Notes under the pieces: generated by a model | Told to the model about the DNA's origin: nothing | The model's database searches: none | Seen by the model: only the letters and a program-made list of their open reading frames with translations | In this document: positions 1 through 50,907 of the stretch, piece after piece | Layout of the letters: every line of letters begins with the position of its first letter | How positions within the stretch are numbered: the stretch's first letter is position 1 | Made by a program: the position numbers and the translations under genes | From: a virus | Reading direction: 5' to 3' (one strand) | Length of the DNA stretch: 64,000 nucleotides | Virus record (IMG/VR): IMGVR_UViG_3300037346_000623 | Span: 1 to 64,000 of that record

Positions 1-207
1 AAATCAGGTCCTGGTGAAGTTGGATATTCGTCACCACCAGGTGCCGGATAAACTCTATCAGGTGCACCTAAATCAGATCCTGGCGAAGTTGGATATACAT
101 CCCCTCCAGGTGCAGGGTAAACTCTATCAGGTGCACCCAAATCAGGTCCTGGCGAAGTTGGATAAGAATCCCCACCTGGGGTAGGATAAACCCTATTTGG
201 TGGACCT
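1..207 (-). repeat. 69-bp tandem repeats (three copies visible)
   Basis: Three head-to-tail copies of 69 bp begin at about 1, 70 and 139. They are in frame and encode a 23-residue unit of the type RVYPAPGGDxYPTSPG followed by PDLGAPD. The first copies are almost identical and the copy at 139-207 is more diverged. The array runs off the window edge, so the copy number is unknown. Confidence 0.9.
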
Positions 208-17958: not shown

Positions 17959-19698
17959 CTAAACTATCAATTCAAATTTGTGATTACCACAGTCCCATAT
18001 TTTATAATACCCATTCTCATGCATAATATAATCAACGGTTAAACCTGGATCGTGACCAAGATCAGTTAATTTACTTTTTGTCCAATTTAGTCTATTGGAT
18101 TTTTTATCATCAATGACCCAATAATAACCAGGTGAGGTCGAACCAATAAAACGAAAACCACATTTATGATATCCGGTATTGTTTGGATCTGGAGAAAATG
18201 CTGCATCGCAATAAGTAACTAAAGATCCACCTATTGATTTTTTAAATTCTGAAATAATTTTAGATATACCACCAAGTACACTTACATCTAATGCGGAGCA
18301 GCTTCTTATAAGCTCGTATTCATATGCTGTATTTTTAGATGATATAAGCTTTCTAGTTTTAGAAAACCCCATTAATGAAACAAGATTGTCATTGTGATAT
18401 AGACCTATAATATGACTGGCAGGGCAATATCCCTTCAAATGATTAACATTGCAAAAATTTTTATAATCTAGCTGATTGACGTTTTTTAATTTACAGGACC
18501 TAGCAAATATTCTATTGGATATATTCATAGAAGATCTTATTCTTGATTTGATAATATCATTTTTATAATTCCAATCATCTTCCCATATATGATACAATCT
18601 AACGCCATTAGCTAAAGCTGCCTCCGTTTTTTTCTTATGGTAATTTTTATCCTTATAAATTTCAGAATGCCAATAGAGACCATTAAATTCAAATGCTATT
18701 TTGAGGTCGGGCAGATAAATATCAACTTCGGAAAATGCTGGATCATTTATAAATATTTTTCTATAACTTGTTTCTATTTTACCATCATATATGGATTCAA
18801 TAAAATTGTATAATTCAATCTCCAGCTTAGATCTATTAAAAATATTAGGATTACATTTTAAACATATATCTATACAAAGTCTTAATTTTGAATTAATTGT
18901 AACTGGGTGATTATTAAAAATATATTCACATTTATTACATTTCAATTCACATAGGACTGATGAGTAATTTAATAAGTCTATCCCAACGGAGTTCAATTTA
19001 TGGCGCATCTCGTTCCTTCTATTTTCTGAAAATGTCATACCTGATTTTTTAGAGATATCAGAATTTAATATAGCATTCTCGTATCCATATTTAGTAAGAT
19101 TTGTGCTTTTTGTTTTATCACTAGTAATAAAACTTAACGTACCGTGATTTTTAATGCATGTATCGTTACGTTTTTTTAGAATATCAGTATTTTTTAATGG
19201 ATATTTACTTCCGTATTTTTTTTCCATTATTCTATCATAGCTTTTTCTTAAAATTCCATCGCTAAAATTATGATTAACCCCATATTTCTCCAGCATAGTG
19301 GATTTATATTTTTCCCTGGATTCCGATCCTTCTTTAAAATAGTCTCCACCGTACCTTTCTGTAATAGTTTTTTTAAATCCAGAAATCTTAGTTTTTTTTT
19401 TACACTGGATAGACCCGCAGGTAGCAAAATAACCTTTATTTAACCTATGATAAACTCTTGGAGAATTACAGACCGGGCATAAAAGAACATTGTATATAGA
19501 TTCATTAATGTGATAAATCCTTTGACCTACTTTAATATCAGAATATATTAGATCAAGAAATTCAGTAATATTAAAAATTTCAGAATTTAAAGTGGAATTG
19601 TTACGGAGTCTTGTAAATATACTAGTACAATTTACACCAGCCAGAGTCGATTGTTTAATCTCATCTATTAATAGATGTAATTCATTAGAGAGAACCAT
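17959..19698 (-). CDS. Homing endonuclease with VSR/EDxHD-like nuclease domain (Hef type)
   Basis: The 579-residue protein has zinc-ribbon cysteines near the N-terminus (CPVCNSP then CGSIQCKK) and a second set (CNKCEYIF, CLKCNP). Between them are repeated short DNA-binding-like modules (EKYGVNHNF, EKKYGSKYPL, TKYGYENAIL). The nuclease domain (about 320-375) reads EVDIYLPDLKIAFEFNGLYW, then VRLYHIWEDDW, which is the VSR-like fold of Hef-type phage homing endonucleases. The gene is free-standing, has its own GATATATA box, and sits directly after the capsid-gene terminator. This placement beside a conserved structural gene is typical of mobile endonucleases. Confidence 0.8.
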   Translation of the reverse strand: MVLSNELHLLIDEIKQSTLAGVNCTSIFTRLRNNSTLNSEIFNITEFLDLIYSDIKVGQRIYHINESIYNVLLCPVCNSPRVYHRLNKGYFATCGSIQCKKKTKISGFKKTITERYGGDYFKEGSESREKYKSTMLEKYGVNHNFSDGILRKSYDRIMEKKYGSKYPLKNTDILKKRNDTCIKNHGTLSFITSDKTKSTNLTKYGYENAILNSDISKKSGMTFSENRRNEMRHKLNSVGIDLLNYSSVLCELKCNKCEYIFNNHPVTINSKLRLCIDICLKCNPNIFNRSKLEIELYNFIESIYDGKIETSYRKIFINDPAFSEVDIYLPDLKIAFEFNGLYWHSEIYKDKNYHKKKTEAALANGVRLYHIWEDDWNYKNDIIKSRIRSSMNISNRIFARSCKLKNVNQLDYKNFCNVNHLKGYCPASHIIGLYHNDNLVSLMGFSKTRKLISSKNTAYEYELIRSCSALDVSVLGGISKIISEFKKSIGGSLVTYCDAAFSPDPNNTGYHKCGFRFIGSTSPGYYWVIDDKKSNRLNWTKSKLTDLGHDPGLTVDYIMHENGYYKIWDCGNHKFELIV

Positions 19699-34538: not shown

Positions 34539-34572
34539 CAAAAAAAAGGAATATTTTCATATTCCTTTTTTT
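34539..34572 (-). terminator. Intrinsic terminator after portal gene
   Basis: Stem AGGAATAT (34547-34554) with ATATTCCT (34559-34566), 4-base loop, flanked by A and T runs. The T-run/A-run overlaps the stop codon of the second portal gene at 34571. Confidence 0.8.
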
Positions 34573-36211
34573 ATAAAGTTACTTGAGGAGACTTTTCCGA
34601 TTCGTCCTCTGCTGCAGGTTTCTCTGCAGCGTCCTCTGCTGCAGGTTCGCCCTCGACTGGAGGAGCAGGAGCTCCCGCTTTTTCTTCTTCCTTTTTATAT
34701 TGTTCATTAAGCTTTAACTGATCCGGAGACATGCCAATGAATCGTTGTATAAGAAAGTCATTATCAAAATATGGAACATCCTCCTCGCCAGCTTTCACTT
34801 TAAGATCGGCAAGAGCAGTTACAAATTCGCTCTTCTTTTTAAGATTCGTCATTTCTACCTGATCCTCAAACTCAAGGTCCCTATTAAAATCAAGTCCTAT
34901 ATTAGCTTTAAAGCTTCTATCCTTAGCCAATTCAGGATATTCCAGACACATTTGTATATAAAGTGGTTTTACTAATATCTCCTGGAATATGGATCTAAGT
35001 CTTCTCAGAAATTTTTCGAATCTTATCTCATCTCTTTCTAATTGGTCTATTGCTATCTGGTAATTAGCAGGGGTTCCATTCTTTGCAGCAAATCTTGCAT
35101 AGGGTATTTTTGAATCCATTTTTAACTTATTGAAAAAATAAAGTACGTTATCCATAACATTAAAATCAGGACCGGAAGGATTCAGCGAAGATATCTCAGG
35201 GGAAACCCCATTTTGTTCGGGAAATAAATAATTTTTATAAAACTGGACTTTAGGTCTACCATTTACAGTAAGTTCTCCTGATGAATCATTAATACTGATT
35301 TCCTCTTTATAATTTGACATGAGTTGTCCCAGAGTTTGCATTGCTTTTTGAGGTGACTGAGTACCTATTGGAATAATGAATTTCATTCTATAACTAGCAT
35401 TCATAACATTCCATATAACCCTAGAATTCTCCATGATTCTAAGTATATTATACGATCTAACTAGTCTTTCAACATAGCTTGTTCTTGATATTGTATTACC
35501 CTTAGCATAAGATATGTAAATGATCTGCTCATTGGTAAGTTTTCTAAACATCTGTGGATTATTAGGATACTGCAACCAAAATTGTTTATATTCATTTTCA
35601 CCAACCTTTTCAACAATAGGTTCAAGAGATACTGCATCCAATTCCTTAAATCCTATTATTTCCTTACCCTTACTATCATATATTATTTCGAATGCTAAAA
35701 ATCCATCTATAATAAACTGTCTAAAATATTGCCAACCCAAAACAGTATTTTGAAATTGAAATATATTATACAATCTATTGAAATGGGAGCTTATCTTTTC
35801 TTTTATATTATCTTTAAGATCTATATTAGAAAAAGATGGCTGAGCAAAATAATTTCTATCATTATAAACTATTGCTTCATCAGTAATAATATCCAATATA
35901 AATTCAATTTCGCCATTTATCGAAAACTTTCTAAGATAATTTCTCTTCTCTATATACGATTTATCGAAATATGCTATATATTTTCTTACCTTGGTATCGT
36001 GATATGATGCTGTCCACTGAAAAGCACTATCTTTAGTATAACCAGTACCCTCCTGATTGAAAAAAGAGCCCTCGGTTCTACCGATAGCTTGCGAGTTTCT
36101 AACAATCATATCATCATATTGCATACCGAATTTGGATATATTACCCAGATTCTTCAATATGTTACCCAATGCCGCTTGATTGGGTTTTAAAAAGTCTAAA
36201 AATCCTGCCAT
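34571..36211 (-). CDS. 20: Portal protein paralogue B (gp20-like)
   Basis: The 546-residue protein shares the full portal pattern with its neighbour 36216-37829. Both have YDDMIVRNSQAIG at the start, WQYFRQFIIDGFLAFEIIYD (about 161-180) in the wing, IIYISYAKGN followed by SYVERLVRSYNILRI (240-270), the MQTLG...GEL crown-side segment, and RSIFQEILVKPLYIQM. T4 gp20 forms the dodecameric portal vertex through which DNA is packaged. The C-terminus is a Glu/Ala/Pro-rich tail ending SPQVTL, nearly the same end as copy A (APQVTL). Gap to copy A is 4 bases. Confidence 0.88.
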   Translation of the reverse strand: MAGFLDFLKPNQAALGNILKNLGNISKFGMQYDDMIVRNSQAIGRTEGSFFNQEGTGYTKDSAFQWTASYHDTKVRKYIAYFDKSYIEKRNYLRKFSINGEIEFILDIITDEAIVYNDRNYFAQPSFSNIDLKDNIKEKISSHFNRLYNIFQFQNTVLGWQYFRQFIIDGFLAFEIIYDSKGKEIIGFKELDAVSLEPIVEKVGENEYKQFWLQYPNNPQMFRKLTNEQIIYISYAKGNTISRTSYVERLVRSYNILRIMENSRVIWNVMNASYRMKFIIPIGTQSPQKAMQTLGQLMSNYKEEISINDSSGELTVNGRPKVQFYKNYLFPEQNGVSPEISSLNPSGPDFNVMDNVLYFFNKLKMDSKIPYARFAAKNGTPANYQIAIDQLERDEIRFEKFLRRLRSIFQEILVKPLYIQMCLEYPELAKDRSFKANIGLDFNRDLEFEDQVEMTNLKKKSEFVTALADLKVKAGEEDVPYFDNDFLIQRFIGMSPDQLKLNEQYKKEEEKAGAPAPPVEGEPAAEDAAEKPAAEDESEKSPQVTL

Positions 36212-36215
36212 TTTA

Positions 36216-37829
36216 TTATAGTGTTACTTGTGGTGCTTCTTCCTCGCCTTCTTTCTTAGTCTCTTTCCCTCCCGATGTCTTTTCTGCTTTCGCCTTCTCC
36301 CTTGCCTTTCTTTCTTTAGCCTCTTTGTTGGCTATTATATCCTGTTTAGACATACCTAAGTACTCCTCTATAAGGAATGCGTTGGAAAAAAATGGTTTAC
36401 CGTCATCGTTCACGAGTCCACCAAGACTAGAAATTGTTTCTTTTCTCTGTACCATCTTACCAATTTCCTGGTTTTCCTTAAATGGATTATCGGACCAATA
36501 ATTAAGACCCAATTGACTTTTGAATAGAAAATCTTTCTCCAGATAAGGATACTTATTAACCATCTGCAGCCACATTGGTTTAACCAGAATTTCTTGAAAT
36601 ACTGATCTAAGCCTAGATATAAATTTATAGAATCTTATTTCCTCTTTGTCCAAACCTTCAGCACCATTGGAATATGGTGATGTACTGCCGCCATCGGGGT
36701 TATGAAACCTCGATGGTGGGACTTTAGACTCTAATATAAATTTATCAAAGAAATATGTTAATGGAGCAGGATCATTCAAATTAGGTCCTTCAGTATTTAT
36801 TGGCTCGATAGTCGGTGTTCCGTTAACACCAGAAGGCATAAGATAATTCTTATAGAACTGTATCTTTGGTTTACCGTCAACTGTAAGCTCCCCACTTTCA
36901 TCGTTTAACTGTATGTCTTCCTTATAGACACTCATAAGTTCTCCGAGTGTTTGCATACCCTTTTGTTGGGATTTTGTACCTATTGGTACTGTCATTTTAA
37001 GCTTAAATGAAGCATTCATAACTGACCAGATAACTCTAGTATACTCTATTATTCTCAATATATTATACGGTCTTATAAGTCTCTCAATATAACTAACTCT
37101 TGATATTGAATTACCCTTGGCGTATGATATGTATATTATTTGCGGATCATATAGAACTCTTTTCTTCTTTGGGTCTTGTGGATATTGTGTCCATGTACTA
37201 ACAAAGCTTCCGTCTAATTGTTTCTCAACACTAGGAATAAGAGTTATAGGATCAAGTTCCTTAAATCCAACTATTTTCTTACCCGTATCATCATATATAA
37301 TTTCAAATGCTAGAAATCCATCTATAATAAACTGTCTAAAATATTGCCATGCTGTTATATCATCAGAAAATCCCCATATATCATATAGGCTCTTATATAC
37401 ATCATATAGCTCATCCTTTACCTTCTCGTTTACATCAGTAAGATCTATAAAATCCGGATATGCAAAAAAATTAGCGGGATCATATGTTATTGCTTCATCA
37501 CATATAGTATCAAGTACCCATTCAACCTCAGGATTTAGCGAGAACATTCTTAAAAAATCACGTTTACCCTTATAATCTTTATCAAAGTATCCTATGAATT
37601 GTCTGGTTGTTACATCCTGCTTAGCAAGAGCCCATAGCATACTTTCGTCCTCTACGTTCGATTTATTCTTATTAAGAAAAGCTGCTTCTGTCACACCAAC
37701 AGCTTGTGAATTTCTTATAACCATATCATCGTACTTCATACCAAAGGTACTAAGTTTTTTGACCGACTCCCGTATTCTCTGTATTACCGGGGATTCCGAT
37801 GGTTTATTATTATCTACAAAACCTGCCAT
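36216..37829 (-). CDS. 20: Portal protein paralogue A (gp20-like)
   Basis: The 537-residue protein is the first of two tandem portal copies. It starts MAGFVDNNKPSESPVIQRIR and has YDDMVIRNSQAVG, WQYFRQFIIDGFLAFEIIYD, IIYISYAKGNSISRVSYIER, MQTLGELMSVYKEDIQL and RSVFQEILVKPMWLQM. It has its own GATATATA box 21 bases upstream. Roughly half of the residues agree with copy B in conserved blocks, and the loops differ, so this is an old duplication with both copies intact. Either could be the main portal; both keep the conserved blocks. Confidence 0.88.
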   Translation of the reverse strand: MAGFVDNNKPSESPVIQRIRESVKKLSTFGMKYDDMVIRNSQAVGVTEAAFLNKNKSNVEDESMLWALAKQDVTTRQFIGYFDKDYKGKRDFLRMFSLNPEVEWVLDTICDEAITYDPANFFAYPDFIDLTDVNEKVKDELYDVYKSLYDIWGFSDDITAWQYFRQFIIDGFLAFEIIYDDTGKKIVGFKELDPITLIPSVEKQLDGSFVSTWTQYPQDPKKKRVLYDPQIIYISYAKGNSISRVSYIERLIRPYNILRIIEYTRVIWSVMNASFKLKMTVPIGTKSQQKGMQTLGELMSVYKEDIQLNDESGELTVDGKPKIQFYKNYLMPSGVNGTPTIEPINTEGPNLNDPAPLTYFFDKFILESKVPPSRFHNPDGGSTSPYSNGAEGLDKEEIRFYKFISRLRSVFQEILVKPMWLQMVNKYPYLEKDFLFKSQLGLNYWSDNPFKENQEIGKMVQRKETISSLGGLVNDDGKPFFSNAFLIEEYLGMSKQDIIANKEAKERKAREKAKAEKTSGGKETKKEGEEEAPQVTL

Positions 37830-37868: not shown

Positions 37869-38354
37869 CTATTTACTCTTGAATAAAAAATTCTCGTCGA
37901 TAACTCCGAATCTATATCCTCTTTTGTCTGCCCATTCCTTAGCTGCTCTAAATTTTGCTTGATTTGTTATCCATATTTGCATATTTCTATTATATGACTT
38001 AAGTTTAGCTAAAGTCATAACACCTTCCATTATGGGTTTAATTGTTTGTTTTTCTGGTTTTATTTCTATTATCCATTCCTGTTCACTGTTATCATCCTTC
38101 AGAACTTTTATATAAAAATCAACATTATAATTATGATCTTTTTTATCAAGAGGATTATAATATGGAATAACAACAGGTTCGGAGCTCCATTTTAATATGG
38201 ATTCGTTAGTATCACAATATGTACAAAATCTATATTCCCAGGAAGATCTATAGATAATATTATGTATATCACCTATATATTTATCGGGGTTCTTAGGATC
38301 ATATTTACCAGATTTATATTCCCCATTGGGCTTTATCTTCTTGATATCAGTCAT
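37869..38354 (-). CDS. 4: Head completion protein (gp4-like, nuclease fold)
   Basis: The 161-residue protein matches T4 gp4/gp50: YRSSWEYRFCTYCDTNESIL (about 35-54), WSSEPVVIPYYNP, VDFYIKVL and WIIEIKPEKQT with a later W-x-x-x-KFRAAKEWADKRGYRF. The E...D...E-x-K arrangement (Glu, VDF Asp, IEIKPEKQ) is that of PD-(D/E)XK nucleases. In T4, gp4 completes DNA-filled heads and allows tail joining. It follows gp55 by 3 bases and precedes the portal genes. Confidence 0.88.
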   Translation of the reverse strand: MTDIKKIKPNGEYKSGKYDPKNPDKYIGDIHNIIYRSSWEYRFCTYCDTNESILKWSSEPVVIPYYNPLDKKDHNYNVDFYIKVLKDDNSEQEWIIEIKPEKQTIKPIMEGVMTLAKLKSYNRNMQIWITNQAKFRAAKEWADKRGYRFGVIDENFLFKSK

Positions 38355-38357
38355 AGT

Positions 38358-38717
38358 CTAGATGTTATATGAATTGTCGTCACCTGTTATATAGCTAAAT
38401 GGGATCGTTACCGGATTTTTTGGCGGATGCAATTTCTTCCATCCCTTGGCAAATCCATGTTTAGCTATCTGTGTAAAATAAGCAAACGGATTATTAGATT
38501 TTTCTGGATTAAATCTATTCCAATATTTACATAAATCCTCCATAGCAAAAGCCATGCAATCCTCTCTATCCTCAGGATCCTTGTACGACATTTTCTTAGC
38601 TATTCCTTCAATCATAAGATTGAACATATCTATAGTTGCTGGCGTTAATTTTCCAGCATTCTTCGATTCAATAACAGCTGCCATTAGCTCGCTATTCTTT
38701 ACATAAACTTTTGCCAT
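38358..38717 (-). CDS. 55: Late sigma factor (gp55-like)
   Basis: The 119-residue protein resembles T4 gp55: start KVYVKNSELMAAVIESK, central IDMFNLMIEGIAKKM, the acidic DREDCMAFAMEDLCKYWNRF helix and NPFAYFTQIAKHGFAKGWKK, the sigma region 2-like helix thought to contact the promoter. It is shorter than T4 gp55 (185 residues); the C-terminal part is reduced to PVTIPFSYITGDDNSYNI. In T4, gp55 directs host RNA polymerase to TATAAATA with help from gp33 and the clamp. Here it is the natural reader of GATATATA. No gp33 homologue is recognised in this window. Confidence 0.82.
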   Translation of the reverse strand: MAKVYVKNSELMAAVIESKNAGKLTPATIDMFNLMIEGIAKKMSYKDPEDREDCMAFAMEDLCKYWNRFNPEKSNNPFAYFTQIAKHGFAKGWKKLHPPKNPVTIPFSYITGDDNSYNI

Positions 38718-38778: not shown

Positions 38779-38816
38779 CAAAAAAAAGAATGTAGTAAAA
38801 AATACTACATTCTTAT
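38779..38816 (-). terminator. Intrinsic terminator after frameshifted gene
   Basis: Stem AGAATGTAGTA (38787-38797) with TACTACATTCT (38803-38813), 5-base loop, A and T runs on the flanks. It lies 4 bases after the stop of the -1 frame at 38820, consistent with the frameshifted product being the natural gene end. Confidence 0.85.
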
Positions 38817-38819
38817 TAA

Positions 38820-41539
38820 TTATTGTTTATCTTCACCAGAGTCATCATTCTCTTCATCACTAAGATCCTCCGTCTTACCAGTAGGTGCCTTCGCGAATTT
38901 ACCCTTCATGGATTGAACAAAAGGTTTACCTGGTTTATTTTGGTTTTCACCTTTAGGTGCGAAATAGAAGTTGCGACTTAGTTTTTTTTTACTTCCTCTG
39001 ATTCAGCAATATTGTAACCAGATTTATAAACTTTAGAATCCTTAACATCAGATACATCGAATCTTAAAACTCCATTCTTGTCAGCAGGAGCAGAGCTAAG
39101 ATTATTTTTTCCTAATTCCTTACCATTTTGTTTATTATTATTACCTGGCGCTTCCGCTAGATTTTTCTTTACATTAGTATTTTTACCTTTGTTCATTTCA
39201 TCGTTACCAGGAGCATCGGAAAAATCAGGATCAGTAGAGCCTTTTGTTAATTTAGATTTCCCCTTCTTATCTGGTGAATTAGCTAATGACTTATTTTTTA
39301 CATTAACATGTGGAGCTTTTTTATCGTTACCTGGGGCTTTAGAATAATTAGTTTTTGGTGTTGCATTCTTTAAATCAGCCTTACCTTCATTCATTGTTCT
39401 ATTATATCCATGTAAGGAATCACCATTCATGTCTATTTTTCCATTATCGTCACCAGGAGCTTTAGAAAATCCATGCATTCCAGCAAGTTTTTTTAGCATT
39501 TTCTTTTGCTCGCTTTCAGGTAGATCTGACTTATTAAGATTATTAGATTCCTTAACATCACCAGAGTCGTCATTATTATCATCAGCAGATTCAGCATTAT
39601 CATCAGCAGCTTTATTTAGTGCTTCATCAAGATCAGCAAGCTCATTTATCTGATGATCTGCAGTTTTTCCACTATCCAAAAGAATAGTATATCTACCAGA
39701 AGATCCATCAATAGATATTACTTTACCTGTTTCGCCTGATTCTTTAACTTTAACAAAAGAGCCTATATTAAATTTCTGATCCTCAAATAAATCAGAATCT
39801 GGCAATAATGTTATATTCTCCTCTACCTTCTGGATTTCTATATTTATTTGATTCCATTTGGTCTTAAGAGATTGTAATTCTTTCTCTAATATAGAATGTG
39901 CCACGTGCATCTCCTTAGAATTATTATATAAAGGATTAGATTCCATAAGTGTTTCAACTTTAGTAATCTCACCTTCTATTTTAGAAATATTTTCAAGGAT
40001 TTTATTTCTGTCATTAATCATAACAGATTTAATTTTAGATTCACCTTCAAGGAATTCTGTTAATCCTTCAGAAATATCATATCTCATAAAGTTCTTAACA
40101 AGTGATACTGCTTGGGATCCATTAACTTCATAAAGGGAATTTTCCCTCATAGTTTCATTTATTTTCTGAAGATATATTTGACCATTCCATTTAAAAAGAT
40201 TAATACCAAGTCCTTCGTATACATTAGATGTTATAGATTTAGCAAAATCTAATTCAACAACATTAGAATAGTTTGTATAAAGTGTCATAATATCTCCAAC
40301 AACCTCTGATTCATTAACACCGAAGTATGATGAAGATTCCAAGCCTATTATTTTAGCTAGTCCAATAGAATCGCCAAATCTAAGTTTATCCTTACCAAGA
40401 TAAACTGAAACGTTATCATTTTCTTCAACTAAGGTAACTATTTTTTTACCAAGTTTAATTGAAATTCCAGATTCGTTTATTTTAACGTGTGGTTTCATCG
40501 TTGTTAGTGCAAGTCTTAGATAATTCTCAGAAAGATTAGAATATTCAGATTTTGGTAATTTTCTTAGTGTATCCGATGTTGCTTCGAATATACATCCCCC
40601 AATGAAGAAGAATGTTCTTCCTCCTTCAAAAAGTACCGGTGAATAAACTTTAGAAACACTAGATTCGCCCTGAGCATTAACTGGGATCTCCAATTTTCTA
40701 CTATCTGTGCTTTCCTGTATATTAAGAAAATTTATAAGATTTTTAATAACCGGATTGAAACTAAATTTAGAAATATTTCTTACCAATAATCCACTAGATT
40801 TATTTTCAGAAACTAACCAAGTATTAAGGGTTTCCGAAAGTTCAGAATAGAAAGAGGAGCTTCCGCTATTCTTGATAGATTCTAAAACATTAGCAACCTC
40901 GATTTCTCTAGAGAATAATTTTGCTTTCTCTTTCAATTCATCAGCAATAGGTGCTATTGAAGAATCCCATGAGAATGAAGCAAGCTCGTTAACAAAGTTA
41001 TTTATGAGTGAAAATTCAGGAACATTTTTATTATCCAAAAGGTATTGATACTGTTCACATACCATTTTTGCTTTAGGATAAGTATAAATAGATGACTCCT
41101 TTATCTTCTCTATAGCATTTCTAATACCAAGATTTTTTACACTCTGAGTTTCGATAAACGATCTTGCAGCGGGATCAGAGGTTTCAAGATTTACTATGCT
41201 CTCATATAAAGAATTCTCATTATCTTTATTTTCTTTTGGTTTATCTGAATAAGATCCAGAATTACTCGATGTAGATTTTCCTAAACCTCCCCAAGATTCC
41301 ATAAGTGAAGCAGCAGATTTTTTAGAGATCTCTGACTCTTCTCTTTTTATTAAATCCATATGATTTTGTATATTATTTCCATCATTATCTAAATCCAGGG
41401 ATGCATTATGTTCGCTAATTAAAACTGTCAGGTTTTCTTTAGAAACTGAACCACCACTAAGGAAGCTTTCACATAAAGCTTTTACCTCAGGTGATTTTGT
41501 TATTTCTTTTACTTTTTTAACTTGATCTATAAAGTCCAT
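38820..41539 (-). CDS. Large putative virion protein completed by -1 frameshift
   Basis: Frame 0 runs from the ATG at 41539 to TAA at 38978 (853 residues). A -1 slip on A9 (A-AAA-AAC at 38981-38987) continues for 53 codons to TAA at 38820, giving about 906 residues. The extension keeps the style of the preceding tail: FAKAPTGK matches frame-0 units FSKAPGDD, YSKAPGND, FSDAPGND. The protein has an N-terminal helical part with many Ser/Glu residues, several [IV]NE sites (e.g. KINESGI, YFGVNESE), a coiled coil near 515-585, and a KOW/SH3-like segment FNIGSFVKVKESGETGKV (about 600). The role is probably structural or in head assembly. Confidence 0.65.
38981..38990 (-). promoter_or_regulatory. Slippery site A AAA AAC (candidate -1 frameshift)
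   Basis: Nine A followed by C and then the frame-0 stop TAA. Slipping back one base gives AAA-AAA-CTA-AGT and opens 53 further codons. A hairpin-free downstream region means that RNA polymerase slippage on A9 is an alternative to ribosomal frameshifting. Confidence 0.6.
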
Positions 41540-49762: not shown

Positions 49763-50338
49763 TTACGCGAATAAATCTTCCCAGTAATCGCAAACCCATG
49801 ATGTTCTTATCGTATAGATAGCAGGAGTTTCATAATCAAGATCCATGGCATTTATAGGTTCACTTATAAAACATGAAGGTATTCTTATTCTTCTAAATAC
49901 GTCACCCTGTTTATTAAATATAGAAATAAGTATAGAACCAACATAATCGTTTTTAAGACCCATTGCCCCAGTTAACGGATTATAAATTAAATCAGACCAT
50001 TGTCTAAGTATTTTATATAGCTCCATTGAATTCGAATTATTAAGGTTAACCTCAAATTCCATAGAAAGATTCATGTCACTTGTTTGTGGTTCACCCCCAG
50101 CATATCTTCTGGTAGCAAATTTATAATTTTGATTAACTGTCTGAGCAGGTGCTATATCAACAGACAATCCTGTTATTGATTTAACTTGTTGGGTTAATAT
50201 GCTTTCTCCATGAAAAGTAGTACCAGCAGAAACAATAGCAGACGGTGGGGTTATCAGTACTTCAAACTGATTAAGAAACACAGGTTCGTAATTATTTATA
50301 CCTGCAAGCGAATTTGTAAAATGTGGTAATCCAGCCAT
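49763..50338 (-). CDS. 19: Tail tube paralogue 2 (gp19-like)
   Basis: The 191-residue protein is a diverged copy of its neighbour. Shared blocks are MAGL at the start, NSLAGINNYEPVFLNQFEV, then ATRRYAGGEPQTSDMNLSMEF, LRQWSDLIYNPLTGAMGLKN and a C-terminus ending CDYWEDLFA. T4 gp19 also ends in a DYWE sequence. gp19 rings form the rigid inner tube of the contractile tail. It is separated from copy 1 by 14 bases. Confidence 0.85.
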   Translation of the reverse strand: MAGLPHFTNSLAGINNYEPVFLNQFEVLITPPSAIVSAGTTFHGESILTQQVKSITGLSVDIAPAQTVNQNYKFATRRYAGGEPQTSDMNLSMEFEVNLNNSNSMELYKILRQWSDLIYNPLTGAMGLKNDYVGSILISIFNKQGDVFRRIRIPSCFISEPINAMDLDYETPAIYTIRTSWVCDYWEDLFA

Positions 50339-50352
50339 TTATCTTTTTTATT

Positions 50353-50907
50353 TTATAGGAATAAATCATCCCAATAATCAACAGCAAATACCATATCATC
50401 TATTTTGTATAGATCAGTACTGGTATAGTTTAGATTCATCGGTGATATAGGTTTAGTTGGGAACGTATCCTTACACGTTATTCTTCTATAAACATCACCA
50501 GCTTTATTAAAAACAGAAATGATTATAGTCCCAGTATAGTCATTTTTAAGACCCATAGCTCCAGTTAATGGGTTATAGATCAAATCCGACCATTGTCTTA
50601 ATGTTTTAAAAACATACATTGAATTTGCATCATTAAGATTGACACTAAAAGTTATACTAAGATCCATAAATGTATTCTCAGGTTTGGACCCTGCATAATT
50701 TCTTTTAGCAAATTTATATTTCTGCTGAACCGTACCTGGATTTTTATCCAAAGAAAGTCCGTTAATCTTACTTACGTGCTGTAATAGTATATTTCCTCCA
50801 GCTATAGCAGCAGGAGGTATTATTGTTACCTCGAATTGGTTTAAATAAACAGGTTCATACTTGTTTATCCCTGATAATGAATTTTGATAATGTGATAGTC
50901 CTGCCAT
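50353..50907 (-). CDS. 19: Tail tube paralogue 1 (gp19-like)
   Basis: The 184-residue protein starts MAGLSHYQNSLSGINKYEPV and carries FAKRNYAGSKPENTFMDLSI, LRQWSDLIYNPLTGAMGLKN and an end AVDYWDDLFL. It lies 39 bases after the sheath gene, as gp19 follows gp18 in T4. Copy 2 is 14 bases downstream. Loops such as the tube-interaction loop differ between the copies. Confidence 0.87.
   Translation of the reverse strand: MAGLSHYQNSLSGINKYEPVYLNQFEVTIIPPAAIAGGNILLQHVSKINGLSLDKNPGTVQQKYKFAKRNYAGSKPENTFMDLSITFSVNLNDANSMYVFKTLRQWSDLIYNPLTGAMGLKNDYTGTIIISVFNKAGDVYRRITCKDTFPTKPISPMNLNYTSTDLYKIDDMVFAVDYWDDLFL

What the first reader, a model, noticed from the sequence alone, without database searches (positions are those of the whole stretch)
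38820..38990. -1 slip on nine A adds 53 residues to a large virion-like protein
Frame 0 ends TAA right after A9-C, but the -1 frame is open for 53 codons and then stops 4 bases before a strong terminator. The extension has the same AP-G-rich unit (FAKAPTGK) as the units just before the slip. A-AAA-AAC is a classic -1 heptamer, and A9 can also promote polymerase slippage.
Basis: partly seen in the sequence, partly recalled or inferred. Interest (0 to 1): 0.75.

Follow-up and report, generated by a model that had tools for sequence, protein, structure and literature searches.

The report
Conserved nine-A frameshift in huge-phage gene
A run of nine A bases at the end of a gene of large bacterial viruses seems to make the copying machinery slip, so that one gene gives a short protein and a longer one, and this arrangement is kept in very distant relatives.

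Summary
In detail: an 853-codon minus-strand gene (41539..38978) ends GTA AAA AAA AAC TAA, and the -1 frame is open for 53 codons (38981..38823), ending 5 bases before a terminator hairpin.

It is not a sequencing error or a decayed gene. Of 154 related contigs covering the gene end, 149 have A9 (136) or A10 (13), none fewer, although the proteins fall to about 30% identity. In 142 of the 149 the conserved extension needs a -1 shift. It evolves as protein in that frame (dN/dS 0.12-0.26; other frames 0.9-2.1). In 38 genes the third bases of the codons NNA AAA AAA never change, while 508 other codon columns average 12 changes and only Trp/Met columns have none. Two lineages that lack the run also lack the extension.

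All nine A are kept, more than a ribosomal heptamer needs; the next base is free; no stimulatory RNA structure is conserved in the window's own clades. I therefore favour programmed RNA-polymerase slippage (an added A) over ribosomal -1 frameshifting, about 0.68 to 0.24. Two protein forms are inferred, not observed. The protein's function is unknown; a role in virion or assembly is inferred only from neighbouring genes.

The parts
38978..41539 (-). Frame-0 gene, 853 codons plus TAA; no known family; disordered tail from about residue 685
38982..38990 (-). A9 slippage run (GTA AAA AAA AAC): A9 or A10 in 149 of 154 relatives covering the site
38978..38980 (-). Frame-0 stop TAA directly after the run
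38820..38981 (-). -1 frame extension, 53 codons (38981..38823) plus TAA (38822..38820), under purifying selection in relatives
38786..38814 (-). Intrinsic-terminator-like hairpin with T tail, after the extension
38358..38717 (-). Context: gene of the T4-type late sigma factor family (phrog_234), next gene downstream
37869..38354 (-). Context: head-closure family gene (phrog_218)
36216..37829 (-). Context: first of two tandem portal-family genes (phrog_213)
34571..36211 (-). Context: second of two tandem portal-family genes (phrog_213)

Best explanation
The A9 run is a programmed slippage site at the end of a conserved morphogenesis-cluster gene of a huge T4-type phage. As the bacterial RNA polymerase copies nine template T, the nascent RNA realigns and some transcripts gain one A (or 1+3n). 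Unslipped mRNA gives the 853-residue protein; A10 mRNA is read past the stop in the -1 frame and gives about 906 residues with the conserved tail; other lengths give short third-frame tails. The two forms probably assemble together in a set ratio. Shown: the sequence, its conservation, selection on run and tail, their absence together. Inferred: that slippage happens, that RNA polymerase rather than the ribosome slips, that both forms are made, and that the protein acts in the virion or its assembly.
For: 149 of 154 contigs keep A9/A10, none has 6-8. Third bases of NNA AAA AAA: 0 changes in 38 genes, against a mean of 12.1 over 508 columns. The NNA codon spans eight types and the base after the run is C, G, A or T, so neither 7-base heptamer alone explains the nine A; L006 shifts the phase (GAA AAA AAA ACC) yet keeps nine. 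Tail dN/dS 0.119, 0.183 and, for a different tail in the distant clade, 0.26; other frames 0.88-2.06. Two lineages lacking the run also lack the tail. No conserved RNA structure beside the site in 30 + 11 sequences. No RNA polymerase beta or beta' found in six large relative records, controls 14 of 14, so a host polymerase is likely. A conserved 9A length is the published mark of purposeful transcriptional slippage (PMC1088944, passages).
Against: No transcript or peptide data. Ribosomal heptamers (A AAA AAA, A AAA AAN) are present at every canonical site. The distant clade mostly has A AAA AAG, the best E. coli heptamer, and a conserved hairpin 17-25 nt downstream, which would suit a ribosomal shift there. 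In L016 and L067 types the run persists although the tail does not need a shift from the main frame. The virion role is a guess from neighbours.
Confidence: 0.68

Rival explanations
1. Programmed -1 ribosomal frameshifting on A AAA AAA or A AAA AAC: tandem lysyl-tRNA slippage on faithful A9 mRNA.
For: A heptamer is present at every canonical site with a stop just after it. Phage late-gene recoding in print is mostly ribosomal (PMC5009743, passages). A AAA AAG dominates the distant clade. Inefficient heptamers such as A AAA AAC are used by some IS elements (PMC4066793, passages).
Against: Nine A are kept where seven suffice, including a free wobble base. The last base is not held to a purine, as efficient bacterial shifting would favour (PMC4066793, passages). 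No conserved downstream structure in 41 sequences of the two clades tested that need the shift.
Confidence: 0.24
2. DNA-level phase variation: the run changes length by replication slippage, so a population holds both frames.
For: A homopolymer of nine is mutable.
Against: Near-identical contigs from different samples keep the same length (for example 10 of 10 and 7 of 7), and 0 of 139 contigs with the canonical arrangement have a length that puts the tail in frame.
Confidence: 0.03
3. Sequencing or assembly error, or a chance frameshift mutation in one gene.
For: Homopolymers are error-prone.
Against: The same junction occurs in 139 contigs of many assemblies down to about 30% protein identity, with the tail under selection.
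Confidence: 0.01
4. The downstream frame is an independently started small gene, not an extension; the A-run is kept for another reason.
For: In L067 and two identical contigs the tail is part of a small separate ORF with its own ATG.
Against: In the canonical sites read, the tail frame is open only 4-15 codons upstream of the run and conservation begins at the run; run and tail are absent together; in L016 the tail is fused in frame.
Confidence: 0.04

Closest known systems
Thermus thermophilus dnaX and other genes with programmed transcriptional slippage at A9 or longer runs (Shigella mxiE and spa13, Citrobacter tssM1, IS transposases)
   Same: A conserved run of nine or more A at a frame junction gives two lengths of one protein; in tssM1, mxiE and spa13 the added base gives the long form (PMC1088944, PMC4256274, PMC5009743, passages and section 43).
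   Different: A phage gene of unknown function, conserved across a broad group of huge phages with clade-specific tails; slippage itself not yet shown.
Phage capsid and tail genes extended by ribosomal frameshifting (T3 coat protein, Lactobacillus A2, Listeria PSA, lambda G)
   Same: Phage morphogenesis genes making a C-terminally extended form; the extension may differ between relatives (PMC5009743, passages).
   Different: Those are ribosomal; here the nine A fit polymerase slippage, and the protein belongs to no characterised family.
Pseudo-pseudogenes rescued by 9A slippage
   Same: A 9A run joins two frames (PMC1088944, passages).
   Different: There intact relatives with a continuous frame are the rule; here the interrupted form is the rule (142 of 149) and the continuous one the exception (4 of 149).

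Membership tests
Programmed transcriptional slippage (9A class) | Run of nine or more A (or T) in the coding sequence at a frame junction | tested here: met
Programmed transcriptional slippage (9A class) | Run length conserved among homologues | tested here: met
   A9 in 136, A10 in 13, none 6-8, of 154 contigs covering the site; 5 have no run and no tail
Programmed transcriptional slippage (9A class) | The alternative frame encodes a conserved product | tested here: met
   dN/dS 0.119, 0.183, 0.26
Programmed transcriptional slippage (9A class) | Heterogeneous mRNA lengths at the run | not testable with these tools
   no RNA reads held
-1 programmed ribosomal frameshifting | X XXY YYZ heptamer in the right phase | tested here: met
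   A AAA AAA and A AAA AAN at every canonical site
-1 programmed ribosomal frameshifting | Stimulatory RNA structure near the site (common, not obligatory) | tested here: inconclusive
   none in 30 + 11 sequences of two clades; a hairpin in 4 sequences of the distant clade
-1 programmed ribosomal frameshifting | Long product made from unaltered mRNA | not testable with these tools
   needs fixed-length mRNA in cell-free translation
Phase-variable homopolymer locus | Run length varies between close relatives | tested here: not met
Phage structural proteins with a frameshifted C-terminal form | The protein is in the virion | not testable with these tools
   only gene neighbourhood

The most novel reading that the evidence does not exclude
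Huge T4-type phages use programmed RNA-polymerase slippage on an obligate 9-10 A run to set the ratio of two forms of an assembly or virion protein: a dsDNA-phage counterpart of Thermus dnaX, old enough to be shared by proteins about 30% identical, in which the tail is swapped between clades (an AP-containing acidic tail, or a different 80-86 codon tail) while the slippage cassette stays.
Probability: 0.6. Interest if true: 0.75.

Novelty: new variant of a known kind. Interest (0 to 1): 0.62.

Why it matters
In the review passages that I read, phage recoding is ribosomal, and the legend of its table of polymerase slippage in viruses speaks of single-stranded RNA viruses (PMC5009743, passages; the table itself was not seen). 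A deeply conserved 9A site in a late gene of huge phages would extend programmed transcriptional slippage to dsDNA phages and gives a natural series (kept, re-phased, fused, split, lost) to test mechanism. It also means that automatic annotation of these genomes misses the last 50-86 residues of a conserved protein. My searches for print on this found one suggestion in a phage, a methyltransferase gene in Campylobacter phage CPt10 (PMC2853527, passages); the library holds open-licence papers only.

Tried and rejected
Sequencing error, decayed gene and phase variation were rejected on the comparison. A stimulatory RNA structure was sought in 30 + 11 sequences and not found. The claim that the extension carries the same repeat unit as the tail before it was tested with a profile of 111 distant-clade units: 0 of 18 extensions and 0 of 360 shuffles were below E 0.01, while 12 of 18 frame-0 tails were, so only the short x-A-P core is shared.

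Function: PHROGs gave nothing for the window protein and Pfam nothing above a curated cut-off; the PDB sequence search gave E 0.079 at best. Models of the whole protein (pLDDT 63) and of residues 1-684 (pLDDT 75, pTM 0.36) matched uncharacterised phage proteins in BFVD, among them one of Tenacibaculum phage PTm1, and one of phage pT24 labelled DNA ligase 1; in the PDB they matched coiled coils and small Tudor/KOW-like domains only, which shows no function. A profile search of four isolate genomes (PTm1, pT24, PAU, MA9V-2) found no relative by sequence (no positive control). PTm1 ORF-295, guessed from position, looked unlike it on reading. Lak phages and LR756500 have remote relatives (21-27% identity); the two Lak records and LR756500 that I read have no A-run or extension at the gene end. 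The bacterial genome scan gave no relative. A search for single-subunit RNA polymerase found nothing, but its controls did not ring either.

Limits of the counts: the two alignment scans found 146 and 216 relatives, of which 80 and 79 loci were kept. In one search, 5 of 104 contigs had no site because the contig ends inside the gene. In one search, 16 of 164 contigs had no match: 10 end inside the gene, 1 (L177) has A9 and a tail but was missed by the script's motif, and 5 (L181, L182, L220; L192, L193) lack run and tail. I added L177 by hand to give 149 of 154. Many contigs are near-identical; one search counts 81 distinct contexts. The dN/dS groups leave out L043 (different tail motif), the distant clade (done apart, 3 sequences) and contigs with a cut tail; the 34-sequence group includes L073, L006, L021 and L059, whose arrangements differ from the window's.

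Full report
What is there. The window is 64 kb of a 117,265-base virus record. On the minus strand an 853-codon gene (41539..38978) ends GTA AAA AAA AAC TAA. The -1 frame is open for 53 codons after the run and stops at 38822..38820; a terminator-like hairpin follows at 38814..38786. The next genes downstream belong to a late sigma factor family and a head-closure family, followed by two tandem portal genes; head protease and major head protein genes lie further on, and terminase, tail sheath and tail tube genes lie upstream. This is a T4-type morphogenesis cluster.

Is it more than chance? Four protein scans and one pattern scan of IMG/VR gave relatives from 87% to about 30% identity. Pooled by contig name there are 164; 154 cover the gene end. 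Of these, 136 have nine A, 13 have ten, none has six to eight, and five have no run. In 139 contigs the arrangement is the window's: NNA AAA AAA AAN, then TAA, TAG or TGA, with the tail in -1. Three further contigs also need a -1 shift but lack the immediate stop or have one more codon before it (L006; L059 and L060). Four contigs (L016 type) read straight through nine A into the tail: TCA AAA AAA AAC CCC AGT. By reading that sequence, an added A there would end the protein a few codons later, so two products would still arise with roles reversed. In three contigs (L067 type) the main gene stops earlier and the tail is part of a small separate ORF that still contains nine A.

Selection on the tail. 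In the -1 frame dN/dS is 0.119 for 34 dereplicated sequences of the window's larger clade and 0.183 for 11 of a second clade; the other two frames give 1.3-2.1. A distant clade has a different tail of 80-86 codons; three of its sequences give 0.26 against 0.88 and 1.33, and I saw no ATG, GTG or TTG near the beginning of its frame in the sequences read. The tail is therefore translated, and in the canonical arrangement the frame reaches no more than 15 codons upstream of the run (frames listed for L003-L027), so the gene's own start reaches it only by a shift.

Selection on the run. On a tree of 42 core proteins, 38 genes have the canonical site. The codon before the two lysines is GTA, TTA, TCA, ACA or GCA (11 inferred changes), yet its third base never changes, nor do those of the two AAA codons. 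Among 508 fully occupied codon columns of the same genes, third bases change 12.1 times on average; five columns have no change and all are Trp or Met; five conserved lysine columns change 5-11 times between AAA and AAG. Some of the 11 changes are first-base changes that leave the third base alone, so they are not 11 independent draws; the comparison with the 508 columns does not depend on that. Outside the slip site, one search lists three A9 runs in about 102 kb of the 42 genes; two of them are the slip sites of L006 and L016 themselves, one is another run in L022.

Absence together. Two separate lineages of the distant clade (L181, L182, L220; L192, L193) have neither the run nor, in the sequences read, a tail frame between the stop and the sigma gene. 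Where there is no tail the run is not kept.

Which machine slips? A ribosomal -1 heptamer needs seven A. All nine are kept, in several phasings (1+3+3+2, 1+3+3+3, 2+3+3+2, 2+3+3+1), and the base after the run is free. In E. coli A AAA AAC is inefficient, and high frameshifting needs the last three bases to be all purine or all pyrimidine (PMC4066793, passages). Nine is the length at which selection against slippage-prone runs becomes visible in a large share of bacterial genomes, and a 9A length conserved in all homologues is named there as making purposeful transcriptional slippage very likely (PMC1088944, passages); slippage is efficient in vivo on nine A or T (PMC5009743, section 43). No conserved RNA structure accompanies the site in the window's clades. 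No RNA polymerase beta or beta' gene is found in six large relative records, though these may be fragments. I put polymerase slippage at 0.68 and ribosomal frameshifting at 0.24; both could act together.

Against this reading: no transcript or peptide has been seen; heptamers are present as well; the distant clade prefers A AAA AAG and has a conserved hairpin 17-25 nt downstream, which looks like a terminator inside the tail frame but could stimulate ribosomes; and the run persists in two lineages where the long form does not need it.

What the protein does. The model has a helical N-terminal part, beta domains, a coiled coil, a small Tudor/KOW-like domain near residues 590-640, and a disordered stretch from about residue 685. 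Relatives by fold are uncharacterised phage proteins. In one subclade a peptidoglycan-binding domain is inserted near the N terminus (L016, Pfam E 3.9e-13; by reading, L067 carries two similar stretches), which hints at a virion part that meets the cell wall. My guess is a virion or assembly protein whose second form carries an extra acidic tail. This is inference.

Comparison with what is known. It works like Thermus dnaX and like tssM1, mxiE and spa13, where slippage makes two lengths, and its outcome resembles the extended coat and tail proteins of phages T3, A2, PSA and lambda, which come from ribosomal frameshifting (PMC5009743, passages; PMC4256274, passages; PMC1088944, passages). It meets the sequence criteria of the first group; the experimental criterion could not be tested. 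I call it a new variant of a known kind. Interest 0.62: the conservation is striking and the mechanism is directly testable, but the kind of event is known and the protein's role is not.

Noticed in passing
36216-37829 and 34571-36211 (minus): Two different portal-family genes (phrog_213) sit in tandem, and 6 of 6 large relative records also hold exactly two, about 1.6 kb apart: a possible two-subunit portal.
   Followed up: partly
L016 aa 122-172; L067 near the N terminus: The L016-type gene has an inserted peptidoglycan-binding domain (PF01471, E 3.9e-13); by reading, L067 has two similar stretches.
   Followed up: partly
L067 6270-6560 region: The extension is part of a small separate ORF with its own ATG, and the main gene stops before it, so the tail may work in trans in this lineage.
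   Followed up: partly
L157, L158, L159, L160 just after the A9: A conserved terminator-like hairpin with a T-rich tail lies inside the -1 tail frame of the distant clade: a possible second control on the long form.
   Followed up: partly
49763-50338 and 50353-50907 (minus): Two tandem genes of one tail-tube-like family (phrog_32623) next to the sheath gene.
   Followed up: no
17959-19698 (minus): A homing-endonuclease-like gene just after the major head protein gene; it holds the other long A-run inside a minus-strand ORF of the window, A10 at 19401..19392.
   Followed up: no
32-170 (minus): A repeated peptide, DxYPTSPGxDLGAPDRVYPAPGG, in a frame that runs off the window start.
   Followed up: no
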